NCBI GenBank assembly: GCA_949710005.1
Contig: OX453282.1
Coordinates: 21,384,664 to 21,448,663, forward strand
Source of the DNA: Ricordea florida
Lineage: Eukaryota > Cnidaria > Anthozoa > Corallimorpharia > Ricordeidae
Reading direction: 5' to 3'
Length of the DNA: 64,000 nt
Part shown: piece after piece, positions 26,089 through 41,893 of the stretch
Layout: each line of letters starts with the position of its first letter
Numbering within the stretch: the first letter of the stretch is position 1
The notes under the pieces: generated by a model
What the model was told of the DNA's origin: nothing
Seen by the model: only the letters and a program-made list of their open reading frames with translations
Database searches by the model: none
Program-made: the position numbers and the translations under genes

Positions 26089-26093
26089 CGAGC
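26089..26093. repeat. Left target-site duplication of the Polinton (CGAGC)
   Basis: CGAGC directly before the left TIR, repeated directly after the right TIR at 41889-41893. The neighbouring bases differ (A/T), so the duplication is 5 bp. Confidence 0.85.
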
Positions 26094-26334
26094 ATATATA
26101 TCAAAAATGTATTTTCTAGGACAAAAAAAAAATATATAAAAAAATAAATTTTAATAAAGCCTTAGTCATACCTTAGTCAAGCCTTAGTAAAACCTTTATC
26201 AAGTCTTCCTTGCGATCAGCCCTGAGATAAATTTTTAAAGTATCCGAAAATCCTAAGACAAATTTTTTTTAAAAAATAAAATTAAAAAAGATATTTAAAG
26301 ATTAGATAAAAAAAATATAAAATTATGGATAGAC
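26094..26334 (+). repeat. Left TIR of the Polinton (241 bp)
   Basis: Matches the reverse complement of 41648-41888 base for base when read line by line. Contains three imperfect CCTTAGT repeats (about 26160-26192), a long A-run, a promoter-like ATTTAAAGATTAG at 26293-26305 and the first ten bases of the first gene. Confidence 0.95.
26293..26305 (+). promoter_or_regulatory. TIR promoter motif ATTTAAAGATTAG (left)
   Basis: 20 nt upstream of the ATG at 26325. The same motif precedes most genes of the element. Confidence 0.55.
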
Positions 26335-26786
26335 TGTTGAAATTTAGTTATTTACAATTGCTTTATCTCGCCAGACAGCATAAAGTTTATAGACGATCCA
26401 GATTGATAAAAAAAGAGCTTGCTCAAAAATTATTTGATATGAAAATCGATATACCTGAGGAAATTATATTACCAAAAGTTTATAAATATAATTGCATTCA
26501 TGGTGCACTTAAATATTTTTGTAAAGAATGTGGTGGATCACAAATATGTGAGCATGATAGAATTAAGTATGCTTGTAAAGATTGTGGAGGATCACAAATA
26601 TGTGAACATAAAAAACAGAAAGCACGTTGTAAAGAATGTAAAGGTAAAGGAATATGTATTCATGGAAAACAAAGAAATTTTTGTAAGGATTGTGGGGGAT
26701 CTCAAATATGTGAACATAATAGACAGAAGGCATTTTGTAAAGAATGTTATGAAAAAATTAAGTTATATAACAAAAAAATTAATTAA
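26325..26786 (+). CDS. Cys/His-repeat protein with SAP-like N-terminus
   Basis: 153 aa. Residues 5-37 (LKFSYLQLLYLARQHKVYRR...) look like a SAP or Rho-N type helical DNA-binding module. From residue 57 to 141 there are five exact 18-residue units CxH-x6-CxxC-x5 (C57/H59, C75/H77, C93/H95, C111/H113, C129/H131, each followed by a CxxC), mostly with the text CGGSQICEH. This is a tandem zinc-ribbon-like array of a kind seen in large DNA viruses and algae. The ATG and first three codons lie in the TIR. Probably a DNA- or RNA-binding regulator; function not known. Confidence 0.85.
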   Translation: MDRLLKFSYLQLLYLARQHKVYRRSRLIKKELAQKLFDMKIDIPEEIILPKVYKYNCIHGALKYFCKECGGSQICEHDRIKYACKDCGGSQICEHKKQKARCKECKGKGICIHGKQRNFCKDCGGSQICEHNRQKAFCKECYEKIKLYNKKIN

Positions 26787-26823
26787 TTTGTTATTTAAAA
26801 AACAAAAATAATAAATAAATAAA

Positions 26824-27360
26824 ATGAATGTTAAGTTGAATAAAAAAATAAAAAAAAAAAATATTGGTTTTACTATTGAATATTTTAACACTGAAAGAAT
26901 TAATAATATGAATTTTTTGAGATTAATAAAAAAAGATTGTTTATACACACTATCAAAAGCACTTTCTATTAAATATGAGGATATTGATAAAGAACTAGTG
27001 GATTTTCAAATTGAGTATACTCAAGATAATGGGGTTAAATATTATTTTCCCTTTTCGTTTACCCCAAAATGTGATATGAGTGGTATATTCCCAGCTGATG
27101 AATTTTCTAATGATTTTTTAAATGACCGTGAGGAAGCGACAAAATTTAGAAATGCTTTAATTAATAATAAAAAAATTTTTATTGATTCTTTTTGGGTGTG
27201 TATATATACAAACACAGATAAAGTATTACATAAAAATAAATTCTACAAAGACTTGCATAATGATTTAATAGTTAAAGCATGGCATCCGAGCAGGTATTTA
27301 GATTGGTGTGTTGATATAGAGGATTTAAAGTTTTTGAAAGAGTTATGGGGTGAAGATTAA
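26824..27360 (+). CDS. Hypothetical Polinton protein, 178 aa
   Basis: Not recognised. Very Lys/Asn-rich N-terminus (residues 1-15) followed by an apparently globular alpha/beta domain with aromatic-rich segments (YYFPFSFTP, DSFWVCIYTN, WHPSRYLDWCVD). An internal Met29 (MNFLRLIKK) is an alternative start. Follows the Cys/His-repeat gene on the same strand after 37 bp, and no separate ATTTAAAGAT box is seen in that gap. Confidence 0.7.
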   Translation: MNVKLNKKIKKKNIGFTIEYFNTERINNMNFLRLIKKDCLYTLSKALSIKYEDIDKELVDFQIEYTQDNGVKYYFPFSFTPKCDMSGIFPADEFSNDFLNDREEATKFRNALINNKKIFIDSFWVCIYTNTDKVLHKNKFYKDLHNDLIVKAWHPSRYLDWCVDIEDLKFLKELWGED

Positions 27361-27409
27361 TTAAAACTAATTATGTTATATAACTAAAATAATAGTTACA
27401 TAACAAAAT

Positions 27410-28045
27410 TTACCTAAATTTTAAGCTAAAAGTTATGGGAGAACCCTTAAGATCAAGTTTTTTCCATTCATTGTCTAATATGCTTAAATCAAAATGGTTT
27501 ATGACACTCTCATATTTTCGAACTGGAATTGTTGGATAATCCTTTGAGGGTATGTTTGCAAGTAGGGTTGATGGTGAGAGTTTCACAAGTTCACCATATT
27601 TGGTGTTATTCATATATGAAGACTTATTATCCACTATACTACACATAAGTCTCAGAGGCTCCTTAATTTGTATATTTATAGGGTATAATTTACCTGGATT
27701 TATAACCTCAGGCAACCCTAAGCCAAATGACAACCCTCTAGTAAGTTTAATGATGAAGTTCTTATTTGAATATAGATAGTCAACCGTATCAGTCTCAATT
27801 ATTGTTATCTTTTCCCTATCAGTATCTTTTAGAAAGATCGATTGAATATCACACAACGAATATGTACCAGGTTGTATTATTATGACGGCTTGATTCTTTT
27901 CATTGTATAATATCTGTTGATCCTTGAAATTAATCAATCTTTTAGTTTTTATATTACAATCCAGGAGTTGTATCTCTCGAAGATTTTTAAGTGGAGGATC
28001 TAAATATATCCTAGTTTCAGACTCATACATTGTTATGCTCAACAT
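27410..28045 (-). CDS. Candidate minor capsid (penton-like) protein, 211 aa
   Basis: Beta-rich sequence without Cys clusters or membrane spans. The length fits the single jelly-roll minor capsid protein of Polintons. The N-terminal part (YLDPPLKNLREIQLLDCNI) and the C-terminal strand pattern NHFDLSILDNEWKKLDLKGS resemble capsid-associated proteins, but I cannot show a specific match. Promoter-like ATTTAAAAAGAT lies 25-37 nt upstream. Confidence 0.6.
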   Translation of the reverse strand: MLSITMYESETRIYLDPPLKNLREIQLLDCNIKTKRLINFKDQQILYNEKNQAVIIIQPGTYSLCDIQSIFLKDTDREKITIIETDTVDYLYSNKNFIIKLTRGLSFGLGLPEVINPGKLYPINIQIKEPLRLMCSIVDNKSSYMNNTKYGELVKLSPSTLLANIPSKDYPTIPVRKYESVINHFDLSILDNEWKKLDLKGSPITFSLKFR

Positions 28046-28066
28046 TTTGTTTGATTACACCATATT

Positions 28067-28083
28067 CATCTTTTTAAATTTTC
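28067..28083 (-). promoter_or_regulatory. Promoter motif upstream of the 211-aa gene
   Basis: Minus strand ATTTAAAAAGATG, an imperfect version of the ATTTAAAGAT consensus. Confidence 0.4.
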
Positions 28084-28092
28084 TATAATCAC

Positions 28093-28132
28093 AACCTGTG
28101 ATAAAAATCGACTTACGCGTAAGCTGGAAAAA
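28093..28132. repeat. Direct repeat copy 1 with palindrome CTTACGCGTAAG
   Basis: AACCTGTGATAAAAA then CGACTTACGCGTAAGCTG; repeated at 28149-28187 with two small differences. Contains a perfect 12-bp palindrome. Lies between two minus-strand genes. Confidence 0.8.
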
Positions 28133-28148
28133 AATTGTTATGTTAATT

Positions 28149-28187
28149 AACCTGTGATAAAAAACGACTTACGCGTAAGCTGAAAAA
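28149..28187. repeat. Direct repeat copy 2 with palindrome CTTACGCGTAAG
   Basis: Second copy of the 28093 repeat, just downstream of the 526-aa gene. Could form a hairpin at the 3' end of that transcript or serve as a binding site. Confidence 0.8.
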
Positions 28188-28196
28188 TCCAGTCAT

Positions 28197-29777
28197 CTAC
28201 CGAAATAGATACCACGCTAATCCACCAGCGACAATTATAAATGCTAATATATTCTTTTCATGTTGTGTGGTCACGTCCGACTTTACGCGTAGCGGGTCTC
28301 GGCCTTTGACTGACTTTTCATTTTGCGTTGGGGGGATTTTTGGTTTTGGATTTGTCTCAACTATTGAATGAGGTAACTTTAACTTTGAAGATCCTAAGTT
28401 ATGATTTATTCCAACTTGTTTTGCTTCAGTGTTTATGGAATTATTCACACCAAAATTCATATCATTACTCGCTTTCATAAGTTTGTTGTTAAAACCAGTC
28501 ACGCTTTCAGTATTGATTATCATATTACTCGGCATCAACCATACACCAGGAGCAATAGCTAAATCAAGCCTTAATTTCGCTTCCTGTACAGCTAATTGAT
28601 ATCTTTGGATAGAACTAGAAATATCATTCTCGATCACACTACTTTCAAATAAAGCCAAGAATTCTTGTTGTGTCTCAATCGCACCACCACCATTACCATA
28701 AATTGAATTTCTAGTGTTAACTTGTGCCCCCAATATACAGTAAACAAAAGCTTCGGCGGATCGATTCAATCTACCAAGCCCAGCTTTAGTGAGTCCATGA
28801 CCACTTGTAGGGATAAACCAAGCATATTTGAAATCAGCAAAGTCATCATTACGTATAAATGAAATGAGATTACCCTTTTCCTTTTTTCCTCCTTCATCAG
28901 CGAATTTGCCACCTTCACCAGGCCATTGATCCGCTTCAACATCATAATTCCTTATAATATGTACATTTTGGTATCCCCCTCCTTTTCCATGATATCCTGC
29001 ACCATAATCAAGGAATATATCTCCTAATCCTCCGTTTCTACCACCTTTCCATCTAAAATCAGCCGAGGTACTAACTCCAAATTCTGCACACAATCGTTGA
29101 TATGCTACTTTACTATATGGATTATTGTTTATTACAAAGGGTTGCTCATCAGGTAGGGGAAGGTTTAATTCATATAATATTCTCCTTATTGTGAAATATA
29201 TATGAAACTTAATGAAACTATTCACTACTTTAGGATAATTTAGACTCTCAAAAGGACTTATACCACAACCAGATGTTGCACACCAAACTGCAAAGTTAAG
29301 TTGTTGTGGCCAATAATTCATATCTGGTGCATTCAACCATTTTCTACTCTGTTTTCCAAATTTGAAAGTCACAACTTGTGATGTAAATATGTTTCTCATC
29401 TTTGCTGTGAATTTCTTTGTATTTGAAACGTATATATCAAGCGAGGTTAGCATTTTTGTTATATCAGTTGAAAAGTCATCAAAATTAACAGCCGGTATTG
29501 GATAAGATAGATTAGTCAATGTTAAACTTTCAGGAAATGAACTCAAGTTCTTCGCTTCGCTCAGTCCTAAATCTTTCCATAAAATTCTTTTCAAACGAGG
29601 TGAAATATCATCAATCCATGTTTTTCCAGTAGGATCATCATTTGACATTATTGTTGTACCATCAACTTGCCATTTAATATATCCACCATACGAATCAGGC
29701 ACAAATGTGAAATGACTTATATCAGCCCTTGGGTACATATTTCTGAAATCGTTGAATAATGACATTTTTTTGTTCAT
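28197..29777 (-). CDS. Large Polinton protein of unknown function, 526 aa, C-terminal membrane anchor
   Basis: The third-largest ORF of the element has no recognisable enzyme motif. A conserved-looking core has NYWPQQLNFAVWCATSGCG (about residue 153) and Gly-rich WKGGRNGGLGDIFLDYGAGY (about 245-265). The C-terminal 70 residues are Pro/Lys-rich and end in a hydrophobic span ILAFIIVAGGLAWYLFR, so the protein is probably a membrane-anchored virion or assembly component. The start at 29777 is chosen because the promoter-like GATTTAAAAGC lies just upstream; Met5 is an alternative. Confidence 0.8.
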   Translation of the reverse strand: MNKKMSLFNDFRNMYPRADISHFTFVPDSYGGYIKWQVDGTTIMSNDDPTGKTWIDDISPRLKRILWKDLGLSEAKNLSSFPESLTLTNLSYPIPAVNFDDFSTDITKMLTSLDIYVSNTKKFTAKMRNIFTSQVVTFKFGKQSRKWLNAPDMNYWPQQLNFAVWCATSGCGISPFESLNYPKVVNSFIKFHIYFTIRRILYELNLPLPDEQPFVINNNPYSKVAYQRLCAEFGVSTSADFRWKGGRNGGLGDIFLDYGAGYHGKGGGYQNVHIIRNYDVEADQWPGEGGKFADEGGKKEKGNLISFIRNDDFADFKYAWFIPTSGHGLTKAGLGRLNRSAEAFVYCILGAQVNTRNSIYGNGGGAIETQQEFLALFESSVIENDISSSIQRYQLAVQEAKLRLDLAIAPGVWLMPSNMIINTESVTGFNNKLMKASNDMNFGVNNSINTEAKQVGINHNLGSSKLKLPHSIVETNPKPKIPPTQNEKSVKGRDPLRVKSDVTTQHEKNILAFIIVAGGLAWYLFR

Positions 29778-29785
29778 AACATGTT

Positions 29786-29799
29786 GCTTTTAAATCACC
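29786..29799 (-). promoter_or_regulatory. Promoter motif upstream of the 526-aa gene
   Basis: Minus strand GGTGATTTAAAAGC, 9-22 nt before the ATG. Confidence 0.4.
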
Positions 29800-29867: not shown

Positions 29868-29903
29868 GGATCTGGCGGAGCCCTCCCCGGCTATGTCGGA
29901 GTG
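29868..29903. repeat. GC-rich hairpin module (A)
   Basis: GGCGGAGCCCTCCCCGGC in otherwise AT-rich DNA, straddling the 3' end of the 219-aa gene. Shares CTCCCCGGC with the modules at 33301 (complement) and 34961. Confidence 0.6.
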
Positions 29904-30550
29904 GTTAATTCTTTTAATAGATCTGCACGAACTTCTCTCCTTATCTGAGACATGTTTAAGTTTTTTTCTGTATCTTTCCTAAATTTTTGACGGATTTCTA
30001 GTTTTAGTTTTTGAAACTTTTCCGACTCTGCTAAAATTATAGAAAATTCTTGATCGGATATAACATTATCTTTCAAAGCTTTTGAAACCAAGTCGTTAAT
30101 AGTGTTTAATTTTGATTTTGCAATTGCAGCAGTTTGTTCGTGTTTACTAACTTTATTCGAAAGTCTTTTTGAGGCCGCACCAAATCCAACAGATACCCCG
30201 CCACAAATTCCACCGACAACACCCAACGGAATACCAATCATTGCTCCAAAACCGGTAAGAGAAGTTCCAAGGCCACTTGCAGATAGAATAACAGAAAGCA
30301 TTCCACTACAAACACTTATTTTTGTAAATATTCCTCTTGCTCGATTATACTTTTTTCTAACTTCCTCATAATGTTTAATTTCCTTCTCAAGATTTTGTAG
30401 TACTTCACATGATTTTTGTAGTCTGAAATTATTAGGATCATTATTCGTTGGTAATCGCCCGGAGGGCGGGCCCGGCTGAGCCGGAATTTGTGGATAAATC
30501 GAGCTTTGCTCGGGACCGGCTACGCCGTAAATTCTATTGTAGTCATCCAT
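29891..30550 (-). CDS. Polinton membrane protein with Gly-rich hairpin, 219 aa
   Basis: Pro-rich N-terminus (about residues 10-35, partly encoded by a GC-rich hairpin module), a short coiled coil (45-70), then two adjoining Gly-rich hydrophobic spans (about 75-98 and 101-124, FGAMIGIPLGVVGGICGGVS), then a charged helical tail. Looks like a membrane-inserting or pore-type virion component. Family not recognised. Confidence 0.75.
   Translation of the reverse strand: MDDYNRIYGVAGPEQSSIYPQIPAQPGPPSGRLPTNNDPNNFRLQKSCEVLQNLEKEIKHYEEVRKKYNRARGIFTKISVCSGMLSVILSASGLGTSLTGFGAMIGIPLGVVGGICGGVSVGFGAASKRLSNKVSKHEQTAAIAKSKLNTINDLVSKALKDNVISDQEFSIILAESEKFQKLKLEIRQKFRKDTEKNLNMSQIRREVRADLLKELTTPT
30455..30530. 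repeat. GC-rich hairpin modules (B, two adjacent)
   Basis: CGCCCGGAGGGCGGGC (30455 on) and TCGAGCTTTGCTCGGGACC (30499 on), both inside the 219-aa frame. The second is the complement of GAGCAAAGCTC found at 34961 and 33301. They encode a Pro/Gly/Ser-rich stretch. Confidence 0.65.
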
Positions 30551-30574
30551 ATTGTATTTTACTGATCAAAATGA

Positions 30575-30587
30575 TATCTTTAAATTT
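30575..30587 (-). promoter_or_regulatory. Promoter motif upstream of the 219-aa gene
   Basis: Minus strand AATTTAAAGATAT, about 25-37 nt before the ATG at 30550 and just before the 482-aa stop. Confidence 0.5.
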
Positions 30588-30588
30588 G

Positions 30589-32037
30589 TTACTTTCTCTT
30601 CTTTACCCTTTCCACAAAATATAGAACCACAGCCATTATCAAAAGCCAAGCATTTTCGCCTAAAAATCCAATAACCTGACCGGCTGTTTTGAATAGAAAG
30701 CTAACTATTGCTCCAACCATTCCAGGTAATATTTCACCGAGTTTCTTACCAATAGCTTTCAAACCATTGCCAACACCTTTACCTAATTTAGATAGACCTC
30801 TAGAAAGATTAGAAACTATAACACCAATAACCACCCCTACAGCACTTACAACTGCAAATACTGTAAAACCATACTTTTTGAAGATATACTTTACTCGATC
30901 CCTTAATGTTAGATTTTTAAGTATTTCTTCATTTTTACTCTCAATATCAGCTATTTGTTCTTGGTTGTAAATAATACTCTTTCTTGTTAGTTCTCTAAAT
31001 TTATCAACTTCAGCTTGTAATCTTTCATTACCTCTTTCTAACATTGTTAAATTTGACTGTCCCTTCTTATACTTATCTATTTCATCTTTGTATACTTTCA
31101 TTTCATTCAAAAGTGTATCTTTCTGTATTTTTAGTTCTATATTTTGTTTAGCAGTTTCATCAAAAAGAAGTTTATTTTCAAATTGTTGTCTCTCAATGTT
31201 TTCACGAAGTTCTTTTTCTTTTTTAAGGAATTCACGAATTTTTTCTTCGTTTTCTTGATATCGAATAATCTCCATAGGGTATACTTTTAGACTTGTTTCC
31301 AATCCTTGTAATGCATAATTTAATTCCTTAATTTCTTGATTCTTTTCATTCAATTGTGATAAAATATCATCATTAGCTTCAACAATTTCTTCTGCTTTAG
31401 GTCCTAAAGCATCTCTTATTGTTTTTGTTTCCATTACTTTTTTGTTTACATTGCCATATTTATCATAAAAATTATGCCATTTAACCTTATTAGGATCATT
31501 ACGCATTATTCCAACTTGTAATTGACCAAAATCATCATACCTAAAATCAAAATTTGCTTTTGCTTTTGGAAATTTATTTTTAATCTCTTGCCAGGCTTCA
31601 TTTTTGTTTCTTTCCATAGCCTCCATCTCAATCTCTTTACTTGATTTGGTTTTAGGTCTAGCACCCTCATCCTCATAATTCCTATAACCTCTAGTTGTAG
31701 ATGTTACTAGAACTGGTATTTTTGATGGTTTTCTACCGAGTAGTGAACTTTTTTCAAAATCATCAGGATTTTCTTCTTCCCCTAATCCAATGGGATCATC
31801 TTCTGGTACTTCTGGTAATTGTGTATATCCTGATTTTGTTTTAGGTCTATCTCCCACTTTTAAATTTTTGCCTGAAATATTTTTTCTAGGGGCTGGGATA
31901 GGCCTTTTCATTTTATCATCATCAGGGTTAATTAGAGGGGTGGTTGATGATATTGGATCCATTTCTATATTTTCTCTATCATCATCATCGTCTAGATCAG
32001 TTGGTTCAAAGTCTGGTATATCTCCTACTTCTGCCAT
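30589..32037 (-). CDS. Coiled-coil membrane protein of the Polinton, 482 aa
   Basis: Acidic, Pro-rich disordered N-terminus (1-130), a long coiled coil (about 215-375), a first membrane span (about 391-410, FTVFAVVSAVGVVIGVIV), an amphipathic Gly/Lys segment (411-436), then two more hydrophobic stretches (about 437-460 and 463-476) and a basic tail. The layout suggests a virion membrane or tail-like attachment protein, but no family is assigned. Upstream motif TCTAAAGATTTC. Confidence 0.75.
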   Translation of the reverse strand: MAEVGDIPDFEPTDLDDDDDRENIEMDPISSTTPLINPDDDKMKRPIPAPRKNISGKNLKVGDRPKTKSGYTQLPEVPEDDPIGLGEEENPDDFEKSSLLGRKPSKIPVLVTSTTRGYRNYEDEGARPKTKSSKEIEMEAMERNKNEAWQEIKNKFPKAKANFDFRYDDFGQLQVGIMRNDPNKVKWHNFYDKYGNVNKKVMETKTIRDALGPKAEEIVEANDDILSQLNEKNQEIKELNYALQGLETSLKVYPMEIIRYQENEEKIREFLKKEKELRENIERQQFENKLLFDETAKQNIELKIQKDTLLNEMKVYKDEIDKYKKGQSNLTMLERGNERLQAEVDKFRELTRKSIIYNQEQIADIESKNEEILKNLTLRDRVKYIFKKYGFTVFAVVSAVGVVIGVIVSNLSRGLSKLGKGVGNGLKAIGKKLGEILPGMVGAIVSFLFKTAGQVIGFLGENAWLLIMAVVLYFVERVKKRK

Positions 32038-32097: not shown

Positions 32098-32490
32098 TTA
32101 TAAAAATTTACTAACTGTGTACCCCAATGCTAACATACCACCACCAACATATAACATTTCACCAGTCTTTTGATTACTGCTTGGTCTATAATAATCCGCA
32201 AATTTTGGTTCGTGCATTTCATTATATAATTTCAAAGCTTCATCAGTATTAGAAATATTTTTTGATGCTTGATATTTTGCATCCTTTTGTTGTACTTTCC
32301 AATCAATTAGTTTCTGTCTTTTTTCCTGATATTCAGCATAATCTTTTTGATATTTTTCTAATGCCTTATCGTGTCTTATTCGTTCTGTATCTGTTTTATC
32401 ACCTGAGAGATATTTTGCAAGATATGATCCACCAACAAAGGCAGTTGCATTTAATACAGCCCCCCCTAACATCATTGCTATTGTTGCCAT
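32098..32490 (-). CDS. Small Polinton membrane protein, 130 aa
   Basis: Hydrophobic N-terminal span (about 4-25, MMLGGAVLNATAFVGGSYLA), charged coiled-coil middle (30-75), and a second hydrophobic span at the C-terminus (113-129). The ATG lies 2 nt after the stop of the 72-aa gene and no promoter box lies between, suggesting one bicistronic message. Confidence 0.72.
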   Translation of the reverse strand: MATIAMMLGGAVLNATAFVGGSYLAKYLSGDKTDTERIRHDKALEKYQKDYAEYQEKRQKLIDWKVQQKDAKYQASKNISNTDEALKLYNEMHEPKFADYYRPSSNQKTGEMLYVGGGMLALGYTVSKFL

Positions 32491-32492: not shown

Positions 32493-32711
32493 TTAATTTG
32501 GTAAAATCTTTTGATCCTCTAAATATGTTTTTAGATACATACTACCAGACAATACAGCTACCCATTTTGCATAATTTGTAATACTTGAGGATGGGTCGTT
32601 CATAAATGATTCTTTCATAGCCTTTTTAGCTACATAACCAACAGCAGCTGCTAATCCAATAAGGACTGCAGAATCAGTAACAGTTTTCACAAGTTTATTT
32701 TCGCTTGACAT
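32493..32711 (-). CDS. Small Polinton membrane protein, 72 aa
   Basis: Two short hydrophobic spans (about 14-27 and 46-59) around a charged loop MKESFMNDPSSS. Own promoter box at 32735-32749. Upstream partner of the 130-aa gene. Confidence 0.7.
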   Translation of the reverse strand: MSSENKLVKTVTDSAVLIGLAAAVGYVAKKAMKESFMNDPSSSITNYAKWVAVLSGSMYLKTYLEDQKILPN

Positions 32712-32816: not shown

Positions 32817-33353
32817 TTATATCATTCCTATTTTTGGTCGATCTAGCGGTTGCGATGCTGTAGGACAAGCAGGTATTCTGTTTTTATTATCCTCCTTTTC
32901 AGTGGATCGGGCGAGGGTGGAGCTGGTTCCTTCCTTCGATCGATATCTCATAAACATATCAAATGCTGTAAACCCTATACCAACAATTGATAATACGGTT
33001 GTAAAAGATAGCTCTGGAAGCCACGCCTTATTAGACTCACTTTCTCTATTTTCATTTTCTTCCCTCTTATTTTTTTGCTCCGCGGCCCGCAGGGTCTCTT
33101 CTCTTTTCATCTCCCTAGCTAATGCTTCTTTTGCTTTTTTATTATATTCGGCTAATTTCTTACCAGCTGCGACTTTTTTAGGATCTTTCACCCTCTTTTT
33201 AGAAACATTACCTTCAGTTTTTTCTTTTGGTGTATCCATTGTAATTTGTTCCACAAAGCGGGGAGGGGCTTCGCCCCGATCAACTTCTGTTCCTTCTTCA
33301 CTCTGGCTTTGCCGGGGAGAGCTTTGCTCGATTTGTTCAGTTCGGTCAGACAT
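32817..33353 (-). CDS. Basic, single-span Polinton protein, 178 aa
   Basis: Open frame runs from 33368, but the ATG at 33353 (MSDRTEQ) is preferred because the promoter box at 33374-33387 is then about 20 nt upstream as in sister genes. Disordered Glu/Ser-rich start, a Lys-rich segment RVKDPKKVAAGKKLAEYNKK (candidate nucleic-acid binding, core-protein-like), a coiled coil, one membrane span (about 114-134, LSFTTVLSIVGIGFTAFDMF) and a polar tail. Four GC-rich modules lie in this frame. Function unknown. Confidence 0.7.
   Translation of the reverse strand: MSDRTEQIEQSSPRQSQSEEGTEVDRGEAPPRFVEQITMDTPKEKTEGNVSKKRVKDPKKVAAGKKLAEYNKKAKEALAREMKREETLRAAEQKNKREENENRESESNKAWLPELSFTTVLSIVGIGFTAFDMFMRYRSKEGTSSTLARSTEKEDNKNRIPACPTASQPLDRPKIGMI
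32902..32943. repeat. GC-rich module (D)
   Basis: GGATCGGGCGAGGGTGGAGC within the C-terminal tail of the basic single-span protein. Shares ATCGGGCGA with the integrase module at 36147. Confidence 0.5.
33255..33334. repeat. GC-rich hairpin modules (E, two adjacent)
   Basis: GGGGCTTCGCCCC, a perfect 13-bp hairpin (33265 on), and GGGGAGAGCTTTGCTCGAT (33314 on), both inside a reading frame. The second is the complement of the module in the capsid gene. Confidence 0.7.
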
Positions 33354-33373
33354 TATTTTAAATATCATTAATA

Positions 33374-34000: not shown

Positions 34001-34018
34001 AGATTCTTTTAAATCGCC
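34001..34018 (-). promoter_or_regulatory. Promoter motif upstream of the 195-aa gene
   Basis: Minus strand GGCGATTTAAAAGAATCT; overlaps the last codons of the ATPase gene. Confidence 0.45.
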
Positions 34019-34635
34019 TCGGGGATCTCCAAATAGCAATTAAATGGATGTCGTAAAGATAAGCAAAGTCTAGAGTATTTTTCAGTTTTCAGGAGTTGTA
34101 CAAACTTTTTACTAGTTTCAGGGTCTAAATCACCCCCATAATCTTCAAAAAACATCTTCATACCTTTCTGCGAGGGATTATGAAATGAAACAACGCAAGC
34201 TACATTTTCACGGAATGGTTTTGCTATCGATGTTAATTGCTGAGTGAGAACCCAAACTGATAATCCATGATGCCTTCCAGAAAATGCTAAATCTATAAAC
34301 TTGTTTGATCGCTTCTTCAAATCATTCGAAACAGCACAATCGTCTAAAATTATTAGTGTATTTGTTCCAGAGAATAAAGTTTGACAATCAGTTAATAACT
34401 CATTAATCTCATCAATGTTACTAGCATCTGGTGATAATACATAGAAATTTTTATCTCCTCGAGCAAAATTATGATAGGTTTTATTTTTAGAATAAGTTGG
34501 GCATATTAAAACAATGAATTCAAACAATTTTCGGAATGAACCTCGGAGTTGATCTATAATGTACTTTGTCTTTCCACAATTTGTTGGACCTGTTATAATA
34601 CAGTTAAAAGGAATTTTATCTCGCAATTCTTCCAT
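34009..34635 (-). CDS. ATP: A32/FtsK-HerA-type DNA-packaging ATPase
   Basis: 208 aa. Walker A GPTNCGKT at residues 16-23 and Walker B LIILDDC at 94-100 (D98/D99), followed by SGRHHGLSVWVLTQQ with the sensor Gln (about 119-133), as in Polinton, virophage and poxvirus-A32-like packaging ATPases. Length is normal for a Polinton ATPase. It would pump the element's DNA into capsids, and it lies directly downstream of the MCP gene on the same strand, the usual morphogenesis pairing. Confidence 0.93.
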   Translation of the reverse strand: MEELRDKIPFNCIITGPTNCGKTKYIIDQLRGSFRKLFEFIVLICPTYSKNKTYHNFARGDKNFYVLSPDASNIDEINELLTDCQTLFSGTNTLIILDDCAVSNDLKKRSNKFIDLAFSGRHHGLSVWVLTQQLTSIAKPFRENVACVVSFHNPSQKGMKMFFEDYGGDLDPETSKKFVQLLKTEKYSRLCLSLRHPFNCYLEIPEAI

Positions 34636-34721: not shown

Positions 34722-36002
34722 TTAGTACATAATGGAGCGCAAACCTGAATTCATAACCTCCATTAATGCATCAGCTACAACAAACATATAACAAGTAATA
34801 ACACCAGACCCACCAACTTTTCTTCTCATTTCTATTTTTATACCATCTTGTGCGTTGTTTAAGGCTAGACCACCCCCATGAATACCATTATCTGGATGAG
34901 TTCTCAAATCTATCCACAGGGCAAACTTATTATTATAAAAATCCTTTTCTTTTACTGACCATCGAGCAAAGCTCTCCCCGGCTAAGCTGGAACGGTAGGA
35001 ACCAGATGGAAGAATGAAGCGTTTCTTTATTGACTCCCAGAAGTCTGAAGGTACCATCCCCTTAGAGTAAAAACGGTTTGGCACACCATTAACATCAATA
35101 TTAATTGAGGTGAAACCTGGATTTAAAAACCTCTCAGAATTTTTTTCCCCTCCCGCGTATGGTAATATAAACAAACATAATATCCCTGTAATTGACCTTC
35201 TGGGTAGATTAATATGTTGATTTATAACACTGTCATTAGGTCTGGATATGGTGAAAGTTTTGTGTAGAGTGACATTCTCGTACAAGAATCCCTTACCAAC
35301 CTGATAAGCTGCCTGTGCCTCACGAGCTAAGTATTCGCTTGATATACAAGAATATTCCAACTCAAGGTTTGTTATTTTGTAAGCTGGAGTCTTGGTCGCG
35401 TCAGAATAGACAACAATATCGTTAACTGGAGCCAGTGTAATCTCAAAGATTAGTTGATGATCTAATGCCTTTGGATAGAAAACCCCATGATCTTTTAGTA
35501 TAGGATGATTTAGCGGGATATGGTACTTGGTGTTATGTACTGCTGCAAGAGCCGCTTCATTTGCATCTGTGTCTACTTTATCACCTGCATTTGTCCGCAG
35601 CTTCCTCATGTTTCTAGAAGAAATACCCTGTTTTAATCTATCCTCACGTTCTTCATCTGTTAAGAATAAGTCATGGTATGTTTGAAAAAGATCGTATCTT
35701 TGAGTATCCTGTAGTGTTTCACCGCCAAAAAGAACCCTGAGTCTGGTTACAAGATTACTACTTACATTATTCACAAGGGTGTTATCTTCATGACCATCAA
35801 CATCCAGGTTAAATACTAGATATACGCTTCCTGGTACAATCACTAAATTTTCAGAAAGTTTAGGAATATTTATATATAAAGTTTCTCCAGGATTAGCTGA
35901 TGAAGGATTTAGTGTAATTCTATTCAATGTTGATTCCGCTTTCAAACCTAGTGGATCTCTTGGAATCCTGTTTGGGTTAATTTTTTCAGATATGGTTGAC
36001 AT
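34722..36002 (-). CDS. MCP: Major capsid protein, double jelly-roll
   Basis: 426 aa, in the length range of Polinton MCPs. The N-terminal RITLNPSSANPGETLYINIPKL leads into the first jelly roll (VYLVFNLDVDGHED..., GGETLQDTQRYDLFQTYHDLF). The C-terminal part has WIDLRTHPDNGIHGGGL, GIKIEMRRKVGGSGVITCYM and the ending FVVADALMEVMNSGLRSIMY, typical of Polinton/adintovirus capsid proteins. It would form the capsid hexons. A GC-rich module at 34961-34995 encodes an in-frame insert (about SSLAGESFAR) before WSVKEKDF. Promoter box 24 nt upstream. Confidence 0.9.
   Translation of the reverse strand: MSTISEKINPNRIPRDPLGLKAESTLNRITLNPSSANPGETLYINIPKLSENLVIVPGSVYLVFNLDVDGHEDNTLVNNVSSNLVTRLRVLFGGETLQDTQRYDLFQTYHDLFLTDEEREDRLKQGISSRNMRKLRTNAGDKVDTDANEAALAAVHNTKYHIPLNHPILKDHGVFYPKALDHQLIFEITLAPVNDIVVYSDATKTPAYKITNLELEYSCISSEYLAREAQAAYQVGKGFLYENVTLHKTFTISRPNDSVINQHINLPRRSITGILCLFILPYAGGEKNSERFLNPGFTSINIDVNGVPNRFYSKGMVPSDFWESIKKRFILPSGSYRSSLAGESFARWSVKEKDFYNNKFALWIDLRTHPDNGIHGGGLALNNAQDGIKIEMRRKVGGSGVITCYMFVVADALMEVMNSGLRSIMY
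34961..34995. repeat. GC-rich hairpin module (F) inside the capsid gene
   Basis: ATCGAGCAAAGCTCTCCCCG followed by GCTAAGC. GAGC-AAA-GCTC is a perfect hairpin. The module is in frame and adds about ten residues between two otherwise contiguous capsid segments. Confidence 0.65.
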
Positions 36003-36025: not shown

Positions 36026-36038
36026 GTAATCTTTAAAT
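36026..36038 (-). promoter_or_regulatory. Promoter motif between MCP and integrase
   Basis: Minus strand ATTTAAAGATTAC, 24 nt before the MCP ATG. Its complement runs into the integrase ATG at 36037, so the two divergent genes share only 34 bp. Confidence 0.55.
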
Positions 36039-37074
36039 GAGTAATGAAAACATATCCCAAAGGTTATCAAAAAATTTCAGTAGGATATATTATTCAACTG
36101 AAGGGTATTGGAAAGGATATTCTGCAATTAATAAATTAGCTGAAAAGGCGAATCGGGCGAAGCCCTCCCACGAAGTGAAAGTAAGTGAAAATTTAGCTAA
36201 ACAATGGCTTCAGAAACAGGCAATATGGCAAATATATCTGCCGGCTCCAAAATATATCCCTAGACCGCACTGGGTTGTAGATAAACCTAATCAGATTCAC
36301 CAAGCAGATTTATTATTTTTACCACATGATAGAGTTGGAAGAAAAACATATAAATACGCATTAGTTGTGGTTGATGTTGCCTCTAGATATAAAGATGCAG
36401 AGCCATTAACTTCAAAAGAAAGTCTTGAGATATCTAAAGCTTTTGAAAAAATATATTCTAGAAAAATGAAATATCCCAAAACATTAATTGTTGATCCTGG
36501 AAGAGAATTTATGGGTGAGGTTACAAAACTTATGAATTACCATAATGTAAAAATTCAAAGAAGTGAAGCTGGAAATCATAGAGCACAGGCATTTGTTGAA
36601 AGTGCAAATAAAATATTAGGTGAGCGATTATTTAGTCATCAATATGCACAAGAAATGTTGCAGGATGAAAGATCTAGAGTGTGGGTAAAACGATTACCAG
36701 CTATTATAAAAACTTTAAACAGCACACCAACTAGAATAACTGGAAAAGAACCTGATAAAGCCATTAAAATGAAAGAGGTTGAACTTGAAACTAAAAGATA
36801 TAAGAGAGTTGTTGGTCTCGATGAAGTTAGATTAACACCAGATGTAAAAGTTAGATATTTATTATCTCCTGGAGAACTTGAGGGTGGTGAAAAAAAGAGA
36901 GCCACAGACCCCATCTGGACTATCAAAGTTTATGATATTTCTAGAAGTGTCATTTCACCTAATCAACCGGTTTTATATTATTTACTTAATGGCCCAAGGA
37001 GAGGATTTGTTAGAGAGGAATTACAGGTTATTCCTTATGATACTGAGTTGCCACCAGATTCCGTTTTAGATTGA
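36037..37074 (+). CDS. INT: Retroviral-type DDE integrase
   Basis: 345 aa. Catalytic triad visible: D91 (IHQADLLF), D153 (LIVDPGREF) and E188 (QAFVESANKIL), 34 residues between the last two. C-terminal part (about 255-335) fits an SH3-like DNA-binding domain. No HHCC zinc finger is seen in the first 80 residues. The enzyme would insert the element and create the 5-bp target duplication. An in-frame GC-rich module encodes about residues 37-48. The 3' end overlaps the polymerase gene by 40 bp on the opposite strand. Confidence 0.93.
   Translation: MSNENISQRLSKNFSRIYYSTEGYWKGYSAINKLAEKANRAKPSHEVKVSENLAKQWLQKQAIWQIYLPAPKYIPRPHWVVDKPNQIHQADLLFLPHDRVGRKTYKYALVVVDVASRYKDAEPLTSKESLEISKAFEKIYSRKMKYPKTLIVDPGREFMGEVTKLMNYHNVKIQRSEAGNHRAQAFVESANKILGERLFSHQYAQEMLQDERSRVWVKRLPAIIKTLNSTPTRITGKEPDKAIKMKEVELETKRYKRVVGLDEVRLTPDVKVRYLLSPGELEGGEKKRATDPIWTIKVYDISRSVISPNQPVLYYLLNGPRRGFVREELQVIPYDTELPPDSVLD
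36147..36178. repeat. GC-rich hairpin module (G) inside the integrase gene
   Basis: GGGCGAAGCCC, a perfect 11-bp hairpin, within ATCGGGCGAAGCCCTCCCAC; lies in the N-terminal linker of the integrase, in frame. Confidence 0.6.
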
Positions 37075-40000
37075 TCCGGCTTAGTTCGATAATGTCCAAT
37101 AGCTAAAGTATGTTTTCCGTCTTTGCAAATTATTCTTTTATCATCATTAGCGGATAGTGCAATCTTATTGATGGCTACGGTATAAATATCATGTTTTTCT
37201 GTTCTAAACACATTCATCTCTCTCATTTGATGTTCTCCAGTTTCTAAAACATCCTTATAATCGTTGTGTTTTATTGTATTTTTTACAACGCATTGCTTAA
37301 TTCCTTTATCCTTTTTTATCTCATCATTATTATCCTTCAATATTGAGTATAACTTAGGCCTCAGACCGATAAATTCTTTTATAATATTTCCACCCATTTC
37401 ATCTTTAAACATACCAATTACTTTTTTATTTACACCTATCTCAATTCCTGAAGGGTGATCTTTAGGATAATTGCTAGTGTCGAATTTTTCTCTAACGTCA
37501 GAACTAATATCTTTGAAAAAATCTTCAGTTTCAATTTCATATACAAGAGAATCAGTATCAGTCATAAGTAATTCAGCCTTATCTCCATATTTAGGTTTTA
37601 TATAATTATAATGAAAATCATACATTATTACTTTACTCAAATCCAAAATGCACATACCTAAGTAAATGGGTTTATTAAATCTTATAAATTTTTTCTTCAT
37701 ATGTATGGCTGCTAAATCTTCACAAAATATTGTACGGTGATGATAATTAGGCTTACTTATTAACTTTCTAGCTTGTTCTTCATTTGTAACTAATCTAATA
37801 TCAACCCTTTTCCTAATATTTTCCATTGTTTTACCAAAAACAGAGTTATTCATTAATTTGAAAAAATCCTTTTCAAAATCATTCTTTGCATTAGCTCTTA
37901 ATTTAGTATTTAAATCGATATATGGTTTTAACCATGCTGATTCTTTGAATTTAATTGCTCTGTGAATCTTTGTTATTTTTAACCCCAAACTTTCATAAAG
38001 TTTTAAATTTTTACGGTGAAGAACATACTTTTCCTTGTTGTTTAAGTTTGGGATTAATTTTTTCACTTTGTTAACAGTAAGTCTTTCAGGAGCTAGTGGA
38101 TAATCATTATGTAGATCGTGAAGATGCTTTGGATAATCTAGATTAACCTCAAGTATGCATGGTATATCTCTCCAATTTTCAAACTCTTCCTCTGTCATCC
38201 ATTTAAAACCGTGTGTAGGTAATAGATCACTCATTGCTGCTCCATATAAGTTATTCGCATCTAGATATATAATATAACTTTTCACCATATCATCTATAAA
38301 ATTTTCCATATATGGATTGTTAGCTTTAGCTTGTCTTTTTGATATTTGTGATATACCACCTCTTATACCCTTCTCAAACATTAGTAACATATCATTATCG
38401 ATAAGTAATTCTAAATTTACTTTAGTTATTTTTAACATGGCATCCCAGGCTAGTGAGGGTGCTGTAAGATAATGTGCGGGATCTAATTGATAATTTTTCA
38501 TACAAACATCTCTAAAATTTTCGAATACATCGGTTAATAATAATACATCTAATAAGAGATAAAGATCGTGGTAATCCCTCATTGTTTTCATATTAAAAGC
38601 TTTCCACACTTTTTGTGCATGTTTATAATCTTCTTCTGATATTTTTTCATCGTTTAATTTAGAATAAAAAGCTTCTATTTGTGGAAGTTTAGTTTCATTA
38701 AGAATATCAAGACTGGTGAAATATTCATAGGGAAATACTCCCTTCCTCATAGCTAAATATGTTTTATCCTTAAAAACTTTTTTAGTTTCAATTAATTTAT
38801 CATCCTTTGGGGAAAGACATCTACTTTTGCTTAACTTGCAATTTTTACATTTTTCACATCTACCAAAACCAGTATATTTGATTATCTTTCCATCTTCTAT
38901 GTATCTCTTAATACAATCTCCTGGTTTACATGATTCACATTTTCCGCAATTTGTAAGATTTTGAACTAAATTGTTGAGGCTTGTTTGCATAAATTTAAAT
39001 GAATCTACAAATCTAATGTCTAAAATATCTTTTTTCAACACACCGTTTTTATTTTTATATTCTCCGAGTATTATTTGTTTTGTATAGGAAATATATTTTT
39101 CTTCATTATTAGGTATACATTTTACTTTACCTTCAGTTTTACCGATACTCTTAATAGAAAGATGTGCATCAAATCCCGCTAAGTTGTGAAAAAATATTGG
39201 GATAAATTTTCTATTAAAAAAATTTAAGTTACACTTTTTATGTGCTGCTCCTCTATATTTTCCAGTATAATGACAGTGATCTCTAACCTTATCCTCTTCT
39301 AATAATTCTTTTTCACATATATGACAGATTGTTGCGTTTTTATATTCGAGTTGTTCTCTTTGCGTCATCCATTTCAATTTCTTGTTTGGTTTAATTTTTT
39401 CATAAATTTGTCTAATATCCTTTTCTAATTGTAACATAAATATTTCTCCTATATCTTCTTCCGGTGATTTAGCAGTGTATCGTCTAATAAAAGGTTCATA
39501 TTCTTCATCAACAAACTTTATAAAGTAACAATAAGCTGAGGCTTTATGTTTATCATATTTAATTGAGTAACTTTTAGTTTTGTCTTCCGATTCGATATAG
39601 TCTAATAAAATTCTATAAGTCTCTTTATCACAATATACAGAAAAAGGTGCTTTAATTTTATTACTATAATTATTAAATTTAAGAATTTCGGGATTTCCAT
39701 CTTTATCTATTGGCATTTCAATCCTGACAGCATCATGTTCTTTACAATATTCTTCATGTTTTTTCAATGTTTCCTCTTCATGAGTGTGATAAAAACATCT
39801 GCGGCATGTGTAAATCTTTTTTGTATGTTTAGTAACTTGAGAATGTACTAATTTATCAAAATTCTTTATCCAGTAGTAGTGACTAGTTTCATTTTTTGTT
39901 ATATACAGTGATTCTATTAAAAATCTGTTTTCCTTATCGCTTATGTGTAAAGGATATATTTTTAACTTTTTTTCATCAAATCCATACACATTAACTGCAT

Positions 40001-41657
40001 ATTTTTCATTTTGATTCTCAAACTTATTAATATCCGTTAATTTAAATGGAAACTCAATTCCCTTCCAATTAAATCTATTAGACATTTCAATCAGTTCTTT
40101 AGTTATTCTCTCTGGATGAACATCTATTTTATTTGTTGCTATGCTTGCTACATAAGGAAAACATTTTTCATCATAATTCTTAGGATTTATTATTGCTTTT
40201 TTATTTGCTAAGAATTCTGGTAGTTCAATATAACTTTTTGCGGAAAGTGGATCAAATGGGTCAATTTTTATATCAAAGTATTCCACACCATTAAATTCCC
40301 AACCGCTTTCTCTTTTTGTATAACTTTTAAAAAGCTCTAGTAAATATCCAATCATCTCATCGAATAGTTTGGATAAATCTGTTGACTCTGTTATAACCTC
40401 AGGCCTTTGACTGTTAAAAAATCCATATGACCTTTCTTTCATATTTTTATTATAATCAAATTGTACAAATTTACAGACGAAAATAAATTTCATCTTTATA
40501 GGTTTCTCTTGCTTATTAATTAAGTTAATAACTGTCGGTTTTATTTCTCTTATAAATGTTAATTCGTCAAGTCCTAATTCTACGATTTTTTTAGGTTCTA
40601 AAAATGCAAGATCTTTATTTTCTAAATCAGTTTTATATTCCCTTCCATATATTCTATATGTTTTCAGATAACCATCGAATGCTGTATTAATTTCTATTGG
40701 AGTAAAATCTTCTAGTTCTTGTTTTTTTTTATTTCTCTTTTTTCTCGGTGTAGGGATTGGTGGTTCCTGAGGTTGCGGATTAGGTTGAGTTTTATTTTTT
40801 TTATTTTTTCTTCTCCTATTTTTTCTACGTTTATTTTTTGAGTTTTGTGATTGTTGTTGAGGGTTCTCTTCCATTTTTGTTTTAGTAAATGATTGATTTT
40901 GTTGTTGTTGTAGTTCTTGTGTTTGTTCTTGAAGAGTTTGTAATGTTTTTATTTGTTCTTGTTGTTCCTGTGGTGTTTGTTGATTTAAGTTTTGTAATAT
41001 TTGTGATTGTTGTTTTATGTTTTGTAATATTTGCGTTTTTATTTGTTCTTGTAGTTTTTGTTTTAGTATTTGTATTTGTTCAATCTGGGGTTGAGGATTA
41101 TTTTTTCTTAGAATGGGAATAGGTTTTTCCTGAGGTTTTGGTTTTGTTTGTGATTTAGGAACTCTAGGTCTAGGATCTTTCTTTTGATTATTAATATTTT
41201 TTCTAGGATTAGTAATTGGAATAGGTTTAGGTATAAAACTTTTTCTAGGAGTAGTGGTTGGTGGTGGTCTACCTGGAGGTGTTCCGGGGCGGCGATCTCT
41301 AGGTGGTCTACCTGGAGGAGGGCTGTCTGGATTAAAGGTAGTATCTGAAGGGTTGTTAGGTGGTGTATTTTCAATTGTAGGTTGAGTATTTGGAATTGGA
41401 AGAGGTGTGTTCTCATTAGGTCTATGTGGTGTGTCTCGTAATGATGCAGTGATTACTCGAATATTTTTAATTATTTTTTCAACATTATTAGATATTTCAG
41501 AAATTTTAGCTAGAAAATCAATACGTTCTCTTTTAGTCTTATAAAATGACTTTCTCCGTGGGTTATACCAGTAAACTAACATTTTTAATTGTTCAGCACT
41601 TAGTTTTCTTTGTAAATTCTCCATATCAGCACTTAGTTCTCTTTGTGGTCTATCCAT
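37035..41657 (-). CDS. PolB: Protein-primed family B DNA polymerase
   Basis: 1540 aa. SAP-like N-terminus (about 18-55), then a Pro/Gln/Lys-rich low-complexity region (about 78-315). C2H2-like finger (C618, C621, H634, C638). Exonuclease motifs: ExoI D677-x-E679, ExoII N825...D830, ExoIII Y1033-x3-D1037. An endonuclease-VII-like Zn cluster CHIC...RDHCHYTGKYRG...C sits at 778-809 and a CxxC-rich finger at 904-947. Polymerase motif A YLDANNLYG (D1133), motif B NSVFG (1271-1275), motif C DTDS (1367-1370). All catalytic residues present, so likely functional. Longer than typical Polinton PolB because of the N-terminal extension. Start and promoter lie in the right TIR. Confidence 0.95.
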   Translation of the reverse strand: MDRPQRELSADMENLQRKLSAEQLKMLVYWYNPRRKSFYKTKRERIDFLAKISEISNNVEKIIKNIRVITASLRDTPHRPNENTPLPIPNTQPTIENTPPNNPSDTTFNPDSPPPGRPPRDRRPGTPPGRPPPTTTPRKSFIPKPIPITNPRKNINNQKKDPRPRVPKSQTKPKPQEKPIPILRKNNPQPQIEQIQILKQKLQEQIKTQILQNIKQQSQILQNLNQQTPQEQQEQIKTLQTLQEQTQELQQQQNQSFTKTKMEENPQQQSQNSKNKRRKNRRRKNKKNKTQPNPQPQEPPIPTPRKKRNKKKQELEDFTPIEINTAFDGYLKTYRIYGREYKTDLENKDLAFLEPKKIVELGLDELTFIREIKPTVINLINKQEKPIKMKFIFVCKFVQFDYNKNMKERSYGFFNSQRPEVITESTDLSKLFDEMIGYLLELFKSYTKRESGWEFNGVEYFDIKIDPFDPLSAKSYIELPEFLANKKAIINPKNYDEKCFPYVASIATNKIDVHPERITKELIEMSNRFNWKGIEFPFKLTDINKFENQNEKYAVNVYGFDEKKLKIYPLHISDKENRFLIESLYITKNETSHYYWIKNFDKLVHSQVTKHTKKIYTCRRCFYHTHEEETLKKHEEYCKEHDAVRIEMPIDKDGNPEILKFNNYSNKIKAPFSVYCDKETYRILLDYIESEDKTKSYSIKYDKHKASAYCYFIKFVDEEYEPFIRRYTAKSPEEDIGEIFMLQLEKDIRQIYEKIKPNKKLKWMTQREQLEYKNATICHICEKELLEEDKVRDHCHYTGKYRGAAHKKCNLNFFNRKFIPIFFHNLAGFDAHLSIKSIGKTEGKVKCIPNNEEKYISYTKQIILGEYKNKNGVLKKDILDIRFVDSFKFMQTSLNNLVQNLTNCGKCESCKPGDCIKRYIEDGKIIKYTGFGRCEKCKNCKLSKSRCLSPKDDKLIETKKVFKDKTYLAMRKGVFPYEYFTSLDILNETKLPQIEAFYSKLNDEKISEEDYKHAQKVWKAFNMKTMRDYHDLYLLLDVLLLTDVFENFRDVCMKNYQLDPAHYLTAPSLAWDAMLKITKVNLELLIDNDMLLMFEKGIRGGISQISKRQAKANNPYMENFIDDMVKSYIIYLDANNLYGAAMSDLLPTHGFKWMTEEEFENWRDIPCILEVNLDYPKHLHDLHNDYPLAPERLTVNKVKKLIPNLNNKEKYVLHRKNLKLYESLGLKITKIHRAIKFKESAWLKPYIDLNTKLRANAKNDFEKDFFKLMNNSVFGKTMENIRKRVDIRLVTNEEQARKLISKPNYHHRTIFCEDLAAIHMKKKFIRFNKPIYLGMCILDLSKVIMYDFHYNYIKPKYGDKAELLMTDTDSLVYEIETEDFFKDISSDVREKFDTSNYPKDHPSGIEIGVNKKVIGMFKDEMGGNIIKEFIGLRPKLYSILKDNNDEIKKDKGIKQCVVKNTIKHNDYKDVLETGEHQMREMNVFRTEKHDIYTVAINKIALSANDDKRIICKDGKHTLAIGHYRTKPDQSKTESGGNSVS

Positions 41658-41888
41658 AATTTTATATTTTTTTTATCTAATCTTTAAATATCTTTTTTAA
41701 TTTTATTTTTTAAAAAAAATTTGTCTTAGGATTTTCGGATACTTTAAAAATTTATCTCAGGGCTGATCGCAAGGAAGACTTGATAAAGGTTTTACTAAGG
41801 CTTGACTAAGGTATGACTAAGGCTTTATTAAAATTTATTTTTTTATATATTTTTTTTTTGTCCTAGAAAATACATTTTTGATATATAT
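41648..41888 (-). repeat. Right TIR of the Polinton (241 bp)
   Basis: Exact inverted copy of 26094-26334. Carries the polymerase promoter and its first three codons. Confidence 0.95.
41677..41689 (-). promoter_or_regulatory. TIR promoter motif ATTTAAAGATTAG (right)
   Basis: 20 nt upstream of the polymerase ATG at 41657; the inverted copy of the left TIR motif. Confidence 0.55.
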
Positions 41889-41893
41889 CGAGC
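41889..41893. repeat. Right target-site duplication of the Polinton (CGAGC)
   Basis: Matches 26089-26093. Confidence 0.85.

What the first reader, a model, noticed from the sequence alone, without database searches (positions are those of the whole stretch)
26089..41893. Intact Polinton/adintovirus-like element with identical 241-bp TIRs
Both TIRs agree base for base, the 5-bp flanks match, and all 14 frames are open with polymerase, integrase, ATPase and capsid motifs complete. Older copies in animal genomes are usually broken. This one could be young, possibly able to replicate and package. The gene set implies a virus-like life cycle in the host.
Basis: partly seen in the sequence, partly recalled or inferred. 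Interest (0 to 1): 0.9.

Follow-up and report, generated by a model that had tools for sequence, protein, structure and literature searches.

The report
Intact coral virus-like element, reassorting family
This is a complete, recently inserted virus-like DNA element in an animal (probably coral) chromosome, one of more than a hundred related insertions in the same genome whose capsid and DNA-copying genes have been swapped between members, which suggests a live, recombining virus lineage rather than a fossil.

Summary
A 15,795-bp element (26094-41888) has identical 241-bp TIRs, a 5-bp target duplication and 14 open frames. Four unoccupied copies of the host repeat it sits in run straight through the site with one CGAGC, so the insertion is real. 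It is not a lone intact copy: the genome holds at least 114 related places, and the capsid frame is open in 97 of the 98 best-scoring capsid loci. It departs from textbook Polintons: 5-bp duplication in 18 of 19 copies and 6 bp in none, (AT)n ends, no maturation protease recognised, capsid fold nearest NCLDV capsids. By type it is closest to published 'meldvirus' chimeras. New here: capsid and polymerase genes are partly decoupled. Six copies with 96-98% identical capsid protein have polymerases 27-99% identical; nine others have capsids 77-80% identical with polymerase 87-91% (seven open). AU tests reject a shared tree. Low dN/dS in capsid and ATPase genes, and near-identical TIR pairs within mutually diverged copies, fit recent insertions from a selected, recombining virus population. 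Particles, transcripts and host species were not tested.

The parts
26089..26093 (.). target site duplication, left copy (CGAGC)
   Evidence: single CGAGC in 4 of 4 empty sites
26094..26334 (+). left terminal inverted repeat, 241 bp; its last 10 bases are the first codons of the ORF at 26325
26293..26302 (+). ATTTAAAGAT promoter-like motif in the left TIR
26325..26786 (+). 153-aa cysteine-rich zinc-ribbon-like repeat protein
   Evidence: (Zn_Ribbon_TF E 0.26 only)
26824..27360 (+). 178-aa unknown; the most variable gene between copies (92% in one, 40-72% over part in six, not found in two of nine)
27410..28045 (-). 211-aa conserved unknown, candidate minor capsid protein (inference)
28197..29777 (-). 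526-aa conserved protein with C-terminal hydrophobic segment, 930 homologues, fold not recognised
29891..30550 (-). 219-aa membrane-type protein (by reading the sequence)
30576..30585 (-). ATTTAAAGAT promoter-like motif before the 219-aa gene
30589..32037 (-). 482-aa coiled-coil plus hydrophobic segment protein (by reading the sequence), N-terminal part variable between copies
32098..32490 (-). 130-aa small protein with hydrophobic ends
32493..32711 (-). 72-aa small protein, 90-97% identical to nine copies
32817..33368 (-). 183-aa protein with one hydrophobic segment
33390..33977 (-). 195-aa unknown
34009..34635 (-). A32-type packaging ATPase, 208 aa
   Evidence: Pox_A32 E 4.5e-12; Walker A/B; dN/dS 0.07
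34722..36002 (-). major capsid protein, 426 aa, double jelly-roll
36029..36038 (-). ATTTAAAGAT promoter-like motif before the capsid gene
36037..37074 (+). retrovirus-type (rve) integrase, 345 aa, D91 D153 E188
   Evidence: PF00665 2.8e-9
37035..41657 (-). family B DNA polymerase, 1540 aa, with endonuclease VII-like insertion
   Evidence: motifs A, B, C; PF02945; homologues
41648..41888 (-). right terminal inverted repeat, 241 bp; inner end holds the first codons of PolB
41680..41689 (-). ATTTAAAGAT promoter-like motif in the right TIR, before PolB (the TIR copy of the one at 26293)
41889..41893 (.). target site duplication, right copy (CGAGC)

Best explanation
A recently integrated, coding-complete member of a large family of Polinton-type DNA viruses in an anthozoan-like host. 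Shown: it encodes an rve integrase, and insertion duplicated 5 bp of a host repeat. Inferred: the integrase makes the 5-bp staggered cut; the PolB copies the linear genome by protein priming, which keeps the two TIRs of a copy alike; an NCLDV-like double-jelly-roll capsid is filled by the A32-type ATPase; several genes are read from short TTTAAAGA-type promoters. Copies meet in the same cells and exchange modules, so capsid and polymerase histories differ. Selection has acted on capsid and packaging genes, which fits passage through particles and not only copying within the genome.
For: Boundaries, TIR and duplication; empty sites. 17 of 18 further paired copies have an exact 5-bp duplication at symmetric termini, 0 of 18 a 6-bp one. 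TIR pairs within a copy: 98.8-100% identical in aligned bases, between copies median 83.7%, maximum 97.1%. Same order of the shared genes in 9 of 9 further copies read, with PolB fully open in 7 of 9 and Int, MCP and ATPase open in 9 of 9. Median dN/dS: ATPase 0.07, MCP 0.10, Int 0.19, PolB 0.38. Decoupling: six MCP-picked copies (MCP 96-98%) have PolB 27, 70, 75, 79, 94, 99% identical over the part read; TIR-picked copies have PolB 87-91% (the 7 open ones) with MCP 77-80%; AU tests p 3.5e-5 and 4.9e-4. MCP without stop in 97 of 98 and PolB in 24 of 30 of the best-scoring loci.
Against: No particle, transcript, extrachromosomal DNA or insertion polymorphism was looked at, and three scans of 2.9 million viral contigs found no relative. 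No maturation protease and no certain penton protein were recognised. The terminal-protein and OTU domains of PolB were not modelled. Scored loci are the best matches, so open-frame rates are biased upward. Gene distances among eight copies are still correlated (PolB-MCP 0.64, PolB-ATPase 0.85), so exchange is partial. PolB dN/dS of 0.38 is not low, though dS there is only about 0.08; the 130-aa gene reaches 1.2 in one pair.
Confidence: 0.72

Rival explanations
1. A self-copying transposon lineage that lives only inside the genome; the capsid genes are kept for some intracellular use, and no infection occurs.
For: At least 114 places in one genome (my count); Mavericks are annotated as 1.4-6.7% of three coral genomes (PMC12005156, passages); no relative in viral contigs; no particle evidence here.
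Against: Capsid and ATPase genes have the lowest dN/dS of the genes tested over 100 aa and are open in 9 of 9 copies read. Copies with near-identical TIR pairs are far apart from each other, which fits entries from a diverse pool better than recent copying of one master.
Confidence: 0.25
2. The capsid/polymerase mosaic comes from host-driven gene conversion between chromosomal copies, not from recombination during virus replication.
For: Many similar copies sit in the same nuclei; PolB is unusually uniform in synonymous sites among TIR-picked copies (median dS about 0.08 against 0.55 for MCP).
Against: One copy shares 98% of capsid residues with the window but only 27% of PolB residues in the 254 aligned; conversion cannot easily replace a gene without DNA similarity. 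TIRs stay matched within a copy.
Confidence: 0.2
3. A captured defence element, virophage-like: the host keeps many copies because they hamper large DNA viruses.
For: NCLDV-like capsid fold and high copy number; endogenous virophages are reported to do this in a protist (PMC10945749, listing and abstract start only) and polinton-like viruses are discussed in that role (PMC12220804, abstract start and passages).
Confidence: 0.12
4. Assembly artefact or free virus contig joined to host DNA.
Against: Both flanks are halves of one host repeat whose unoccupied copies are continuous; 18 more paired copies lie on contigs of 24-49 Mb.
Confidence: 0.02

Closest known systems
Meldvirus chimeras with adintovirus-like PolB and integrase plus poxvirus/megavirus-like virion proteins (Meld23486 type, Buck et al. 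2024, PMC11071296; passages and section 16 read)
   Same: Type B polymerase plus rve integrase combined with a capsid protein whose predicted fold resembles large DNA virus capsids
   Different: Sequence relation not tested (no reference sequence at hand); what I read of that text gives no integrated family with target duplications, copy numbers or module exchange within one genome
Polinton/Maverick elements (Polintoviricetes), e.g. vertebrate Mavericks (PMC8097293, passages)
   Same: PolB, rve integrase, packaging ATPase, double-jelly-roll capsid, TIRs of some hundred bp, similar length, uninterrupted genes, purifying selection
   Different: 5-bp not 6-bp duplication, (AT)n not (AG)3/(AGT)2 ends, no protease recognised; 97 open capsid loci here against at most 38 fully intact elements per vertebrate genome there (not the same measure)
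Adintoviruses (definition as in PMC11071296)
   Same: PolB plus rve integrase in animals; one adintovirus capsid record is among the structural matches
   Different: No chromodomain found on the integrase; hexon and OTU-domain criteria were not settled
Endogenous polinton-like viruses of protists (PMC12220804, passages)
   Same: Very many integrated, TIR-bounded copies; short duplications described as 5-6 bp there
   Different: Host here is an animal; no sequence comparison with them was made

Membership tests
Polinton/Maverick | protein-primed-type family B DNA polymerase | tested here: met
   motifs A DANNLYG, B KLMNNSVFGK, C TDTDS; homologues in Nematostella, Stylophora, Exaiptasia; Pfam's PolB models did not match; protein priming itself not tested
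Polinton/Maverick | retrovirus-type integrase | tested here: met
   PF00665 2.8e-9; D, D, E at 91, 153, 188
Polinton/Maverick | long terminal inverted repeats | tested here: met
   241 bp, 100%
Polinton/Maverick | 6-bp target site duplication (as reported for rve-integrase elements) | tested here: not met
   5 bp in the window copy and 17 of 18 others; 6 bp in 0 of 19; the 18th fits 5 bp if one AT unit is added at one end
Polinton/Maverick | AG- or AGT-repeat end motifs (vertebrate Mavericks) | tested here: not met
   19 of 19 copies begin ATATAT
Polinton/Maverick | Ulp1/adenain-type maturation protease | tested here: inconclusive
   no such match for the nine unassigned ORFs of 130 aa or more in Pfam nor for six of them in PHROGs; the 72-aa ORF was not scanned and a diverged protease cannot be excluded
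Polinton/Maverick | double-jelly-roll major capsid protein | tested here: met
Polinton/Maverick | FtsK/HerA-A32 packaging ATPase | tested here: met
   PF04665 4.5e-12
Polinton/Maverick | single-jelly-roll minor capsid (penton) protein | tested here: inconclusive
   211-aa protein is a candidate by position only; the 526-aa model (pLDDT 65) had no match
Adintovirus | hexon recognisable by BLASTP to reference adintoviruses | not tested
   no reference hexon sequences were fetched; a structural match to one adintovirus capsid record was listed
Adintovirus | integrase with C-terminal chromodomain | tested here: inconclusive
   no chromodomain in Pfam at E up to 1
Adintovirus | OTU-like domain in the PolB N-terminal part | tested here: inconclusive
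   no OTU match in Pfam for residues 1-560 or 561-960; no structure model made
Meldvirus chimera | PolB and integrase united with large-virus-like capsid protein | tested here: met
   by type only, no sequence comparison with Meld23486
Virophage (Maveriviricetes) | virophage-type major capsid protein | tested here: inconclusive

The most novel reading that the evidence does not exclude
An animal germline holds a living, reassorting population of integrating DNA viruses: over a hundred places, many with open genes, whose capsid and polymerase modules have been exchanged repeatedly, with fresh insertions still arriving from a diverse infectious pool, using an integrase that makes 5-bp rather than 6-bp duplications.
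Probability: 0.4. Interest if true: 0.85.

Novelty: new variant of a known kind. Interest (0 to 1): 0.64.

Why it matters
Whether animal Polintons are still viruses is an open question, because most known vertebrate copies are fossils (96% defective in PMC8097293, passages). A genome with many open, recently inserted, mutually diverged copies makes it testable by insertion polymorphism, transcripts and particle-protected DNA. The exchange of capsid and polymerase modules in one host shows how chimeric virus groups such as meldviruses can arise, and warns that a tree of one gene does not track the element.
Full report
What is there. The element spans 26094-41888 (15,795 bp). The two TIRs are 241 bp and identical. 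The duplication CGAGC flanks it and does not extend to six bases. Fourteen ATG-to-stop frames cover 14,606 bp and each translates with one terminal stop. GC is 0.317 inside and 0.382 outside. No relic of the element's genes was found in the window's flanks. Each TIR runs ten bases into a terminal gene, so that both terminal genes (PolB and a cysteine-rich 153-aa protein) share their upstream region and first codons; the inner TIR edge lies in such a start-codon region in 19 of 19 copies compared.

The insertion is real. The last 119 bp before the left edge belong to a dispersed host repeat: of the 40 matches scored (48 candidates) to the 400-bp left flank, 31 reach into that stretch, the window itself included. 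Four unoccupied copies picked from these matches were read; 4 of 4 align without interruption across the joined flanks (88-91% identity, 311-317 columns) with a single CGAGC. The matching right-flank search did not complete.

A family in one genome. The window lies in a 538-Mb assembly of 48 contigs. The TIR query (40 of 72 candidates scored) found 19 elements with paired inverted ends, the window's included, and two unpaired ends. The capsid protein query scored 98 loci: 89-100% identical over the whole or nearly whole query, 97 of 98 without a stop. PolB scored 30 loci: 24 without stops in the matched parts, 6 with stops (C9:25814274, C1:29118536, C15:21965160, C16:23228790, C9:7886301, and the N-terminal piece of C3:4163693). 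Sixteen of the 19 TIR-paired elements contain none of the 98 capsid hits, so at least 114 distinct places are occupied (my count). These are best-scoring loci, so the open fraction is biased upward, and the totals are lower bounds.

Duplication length. At symmetric ATATAT ends, 17 of 18 further copies have an exact 5-bp duplication and 0 of 18 a 6-bp one; the eighteenth (C6_4.63) fits 5 bp if one AT unit has been added at one end. Published rve-integrase elements typically show 6 bp (PMC8097293 and PMC12220804, passages); the latter also speaks of 5-6 bp for polinton-like viruses. A constant 5 bp is thus a family trait here rather than noise.

Ages and origins. Within a copy the TIRs are 98.8-100% identical in aligned bases (96.9-100% with gaps), between copies the median is 83.7% and the highest 97.1%. 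Each insertion is therefore much younger than most splits between copies. In the ten copies read gene by gene, the smallest synonymous distances between any two were 0.043 for PolB, 0.053 for Int and 0.047 for MCP; shorter or other genes go lower (526-aa 0.018, 130-aa 0.013, 72-aa 0). This fits repeated entry from a diverse pool better than a burst from one master copy, though ten copies are few and were chosen by TIR similarity, and two on C7 are close relatives in most genes.

Selection. Nine further copies, those for which the tool answered (of 18), have the shared genes in the same order. PolB is open in 7 of 9 (broken in C1_29.12 and C9_7.88), the 219-aa gene is truncated in C7_31.86, the 195-aa gene in C1_29.12 and shorter in C2_41.70; Int, MCP, ATPase, the 211-aa and the 526-aa genes are open in 9 of 9. 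The 178-aa gene was not found in 2 of 9 and is diverged in 6. Median pairwise dN/dS, after leaving out four broken genes (PolB of C1_29.12 and C9_7.88, 219-aa of C7_31.86, 195-aa of C1_29.12): ATPase 0.07, MCP 0.10, 72-aa 0.11, 219-aa 0.15, 211-aa 0.18, Int 0.19, 526-aa 0.24, 153-aa 0.26, 195-aa 0.28, 130-aa 0.36 (up to 1.2 in one pair), PolB 0.38. The 178-, 183- and 482-aa genes were not tested.

Module exchange. Between the window copy and seven TIR-picked copies, dS is 0.08-0.11 for PolB but 0.68-0.85 for MCP and 0.50-0.80 for ATPase. To reverse the choice I took six of the 98 copies, with MCP 96-98% identical to the window's, and read 1.5 kb across the integrase end and PolB: PolB identity over the aligned part was 27% (C3:4256237, 254 residues), 70%, 75%, 79%, 94% and 99%; over the whole PolB the last two are 92% and 95%. 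TIR-picked copies show the opposite, PolB 87-91% in the seven open ones with MCP 77-80% in nine. With eight copies the MCP data reject the PolB tree (AU p 3.5e-5) and the PolB data reject the MCP tree (p 4.9e-4). Distances of different genes remain correlated in these eight (PolB-MCP 0.64, PolB-ATPase 0.85, MCP-ATPase 0.79), so exchange is real but not complete. In the public protein set the nearest capsid is 95% identical while the nearest listed PolB is 75% (only 8,000 candidates scored).

Promoters. ATTTAAAGAT occurs four times in the 64 kb (0.65 expected), all inside the element and upstream of an ORF; two of the four are the TIR copies of one site. A looser form sits upstream of 7 of 14 genes in the window copy, in six of them 31-36 nt before the ATG, and at like distances in other copies, but not before the 526-aa, ATPase and Int genes. 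The motif was picked from these same sequences; as a promoter it is an inference.

Distribution. 770 capsid homologues and 930 homologues of the 526-aa protein pass the cut. Four contig lengths (15,804, 12,278, 16,053 and 13,958 bp) recur in both lists, which suggests the same contigs; the first is about the length of the element. The four named PolB relatives among the 120 listed are from Nematostella (two), Stylophora and Exaiptasia, so an anthozoan host is likely but not established. That Mavericks are abundant in corals is known from repeat annotation: 5.20%, 6.74% and 1.41% of three coral genomes (PMC12005156, passages). In the listings I saw no paper on open, mosaic elements of this kind in corals; most subscription journals are not in that library, the adintovirus paper is not held, and a search for the nematode polinton paper did not list it.

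Verdict. Real, precise, recently inserted and coding-complete. It works like a Polinton-type virus, but two typical Polinton traits were tested and not met, so I file it as a variant, nearest in type to the meldvirus chimeras of PMC11071296 (passages and section 16). The surprise is not the single copy but the size, openness and module exchange of its family in one animal genome.

Noticed in passing
window 21966-23638: Open frames left of the element include a YqaJ-like viral recombinase / alkaline exonuclease domain (PF09588 1.8e-7 at 23249-23638), about 2.5 kb from the insertion; not part of the element.
   Followed up: partly
window 24537-24872 (-): THAP-domain frame (PF05485, 1.7e-11).
   Followed up: no
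window 25170-25282: Perfect 51-bp inverted repeat with an 11-bp loop, MITE- or hairpin-like, less than 1 kb from the element.
   Followed up: no
window 7490-7896; 54176-55068; 56155-56861: Tandem arrays: a 15-bp unit x27, a 95/189-bp unit x9.5, and a 177-bp unit x4 with 100% matches.
   Followed up: no
window 61098-62010: Two neighbouring host genes on opposite strands: a TP-methylase-domain exon (DPH5-like by recall) and an S4-domain protein (IMP3-like by recall).
   Followed up: no
L068 (G000:C3:4258384-4259884): The neighbour of a 98% identical capsid gene is a PolB only 27% identical to the window's, so at least two deep PolB clades are linked to one capsid lineage in this genome.
   Followed up: partly
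P0246 (Stylophora pistillata record): A gene model with PF00665, PF07498, PF02945, PF08398 and PF00385 together (rve, Rho_N, endonuclease VII, parvovirus-coat-like, chromodomain; the names of PF07498, PF08398 and PF00385 recalled), called transposon-derived F54H12.3; database gene models of this family may be fused.
   Followed up: no
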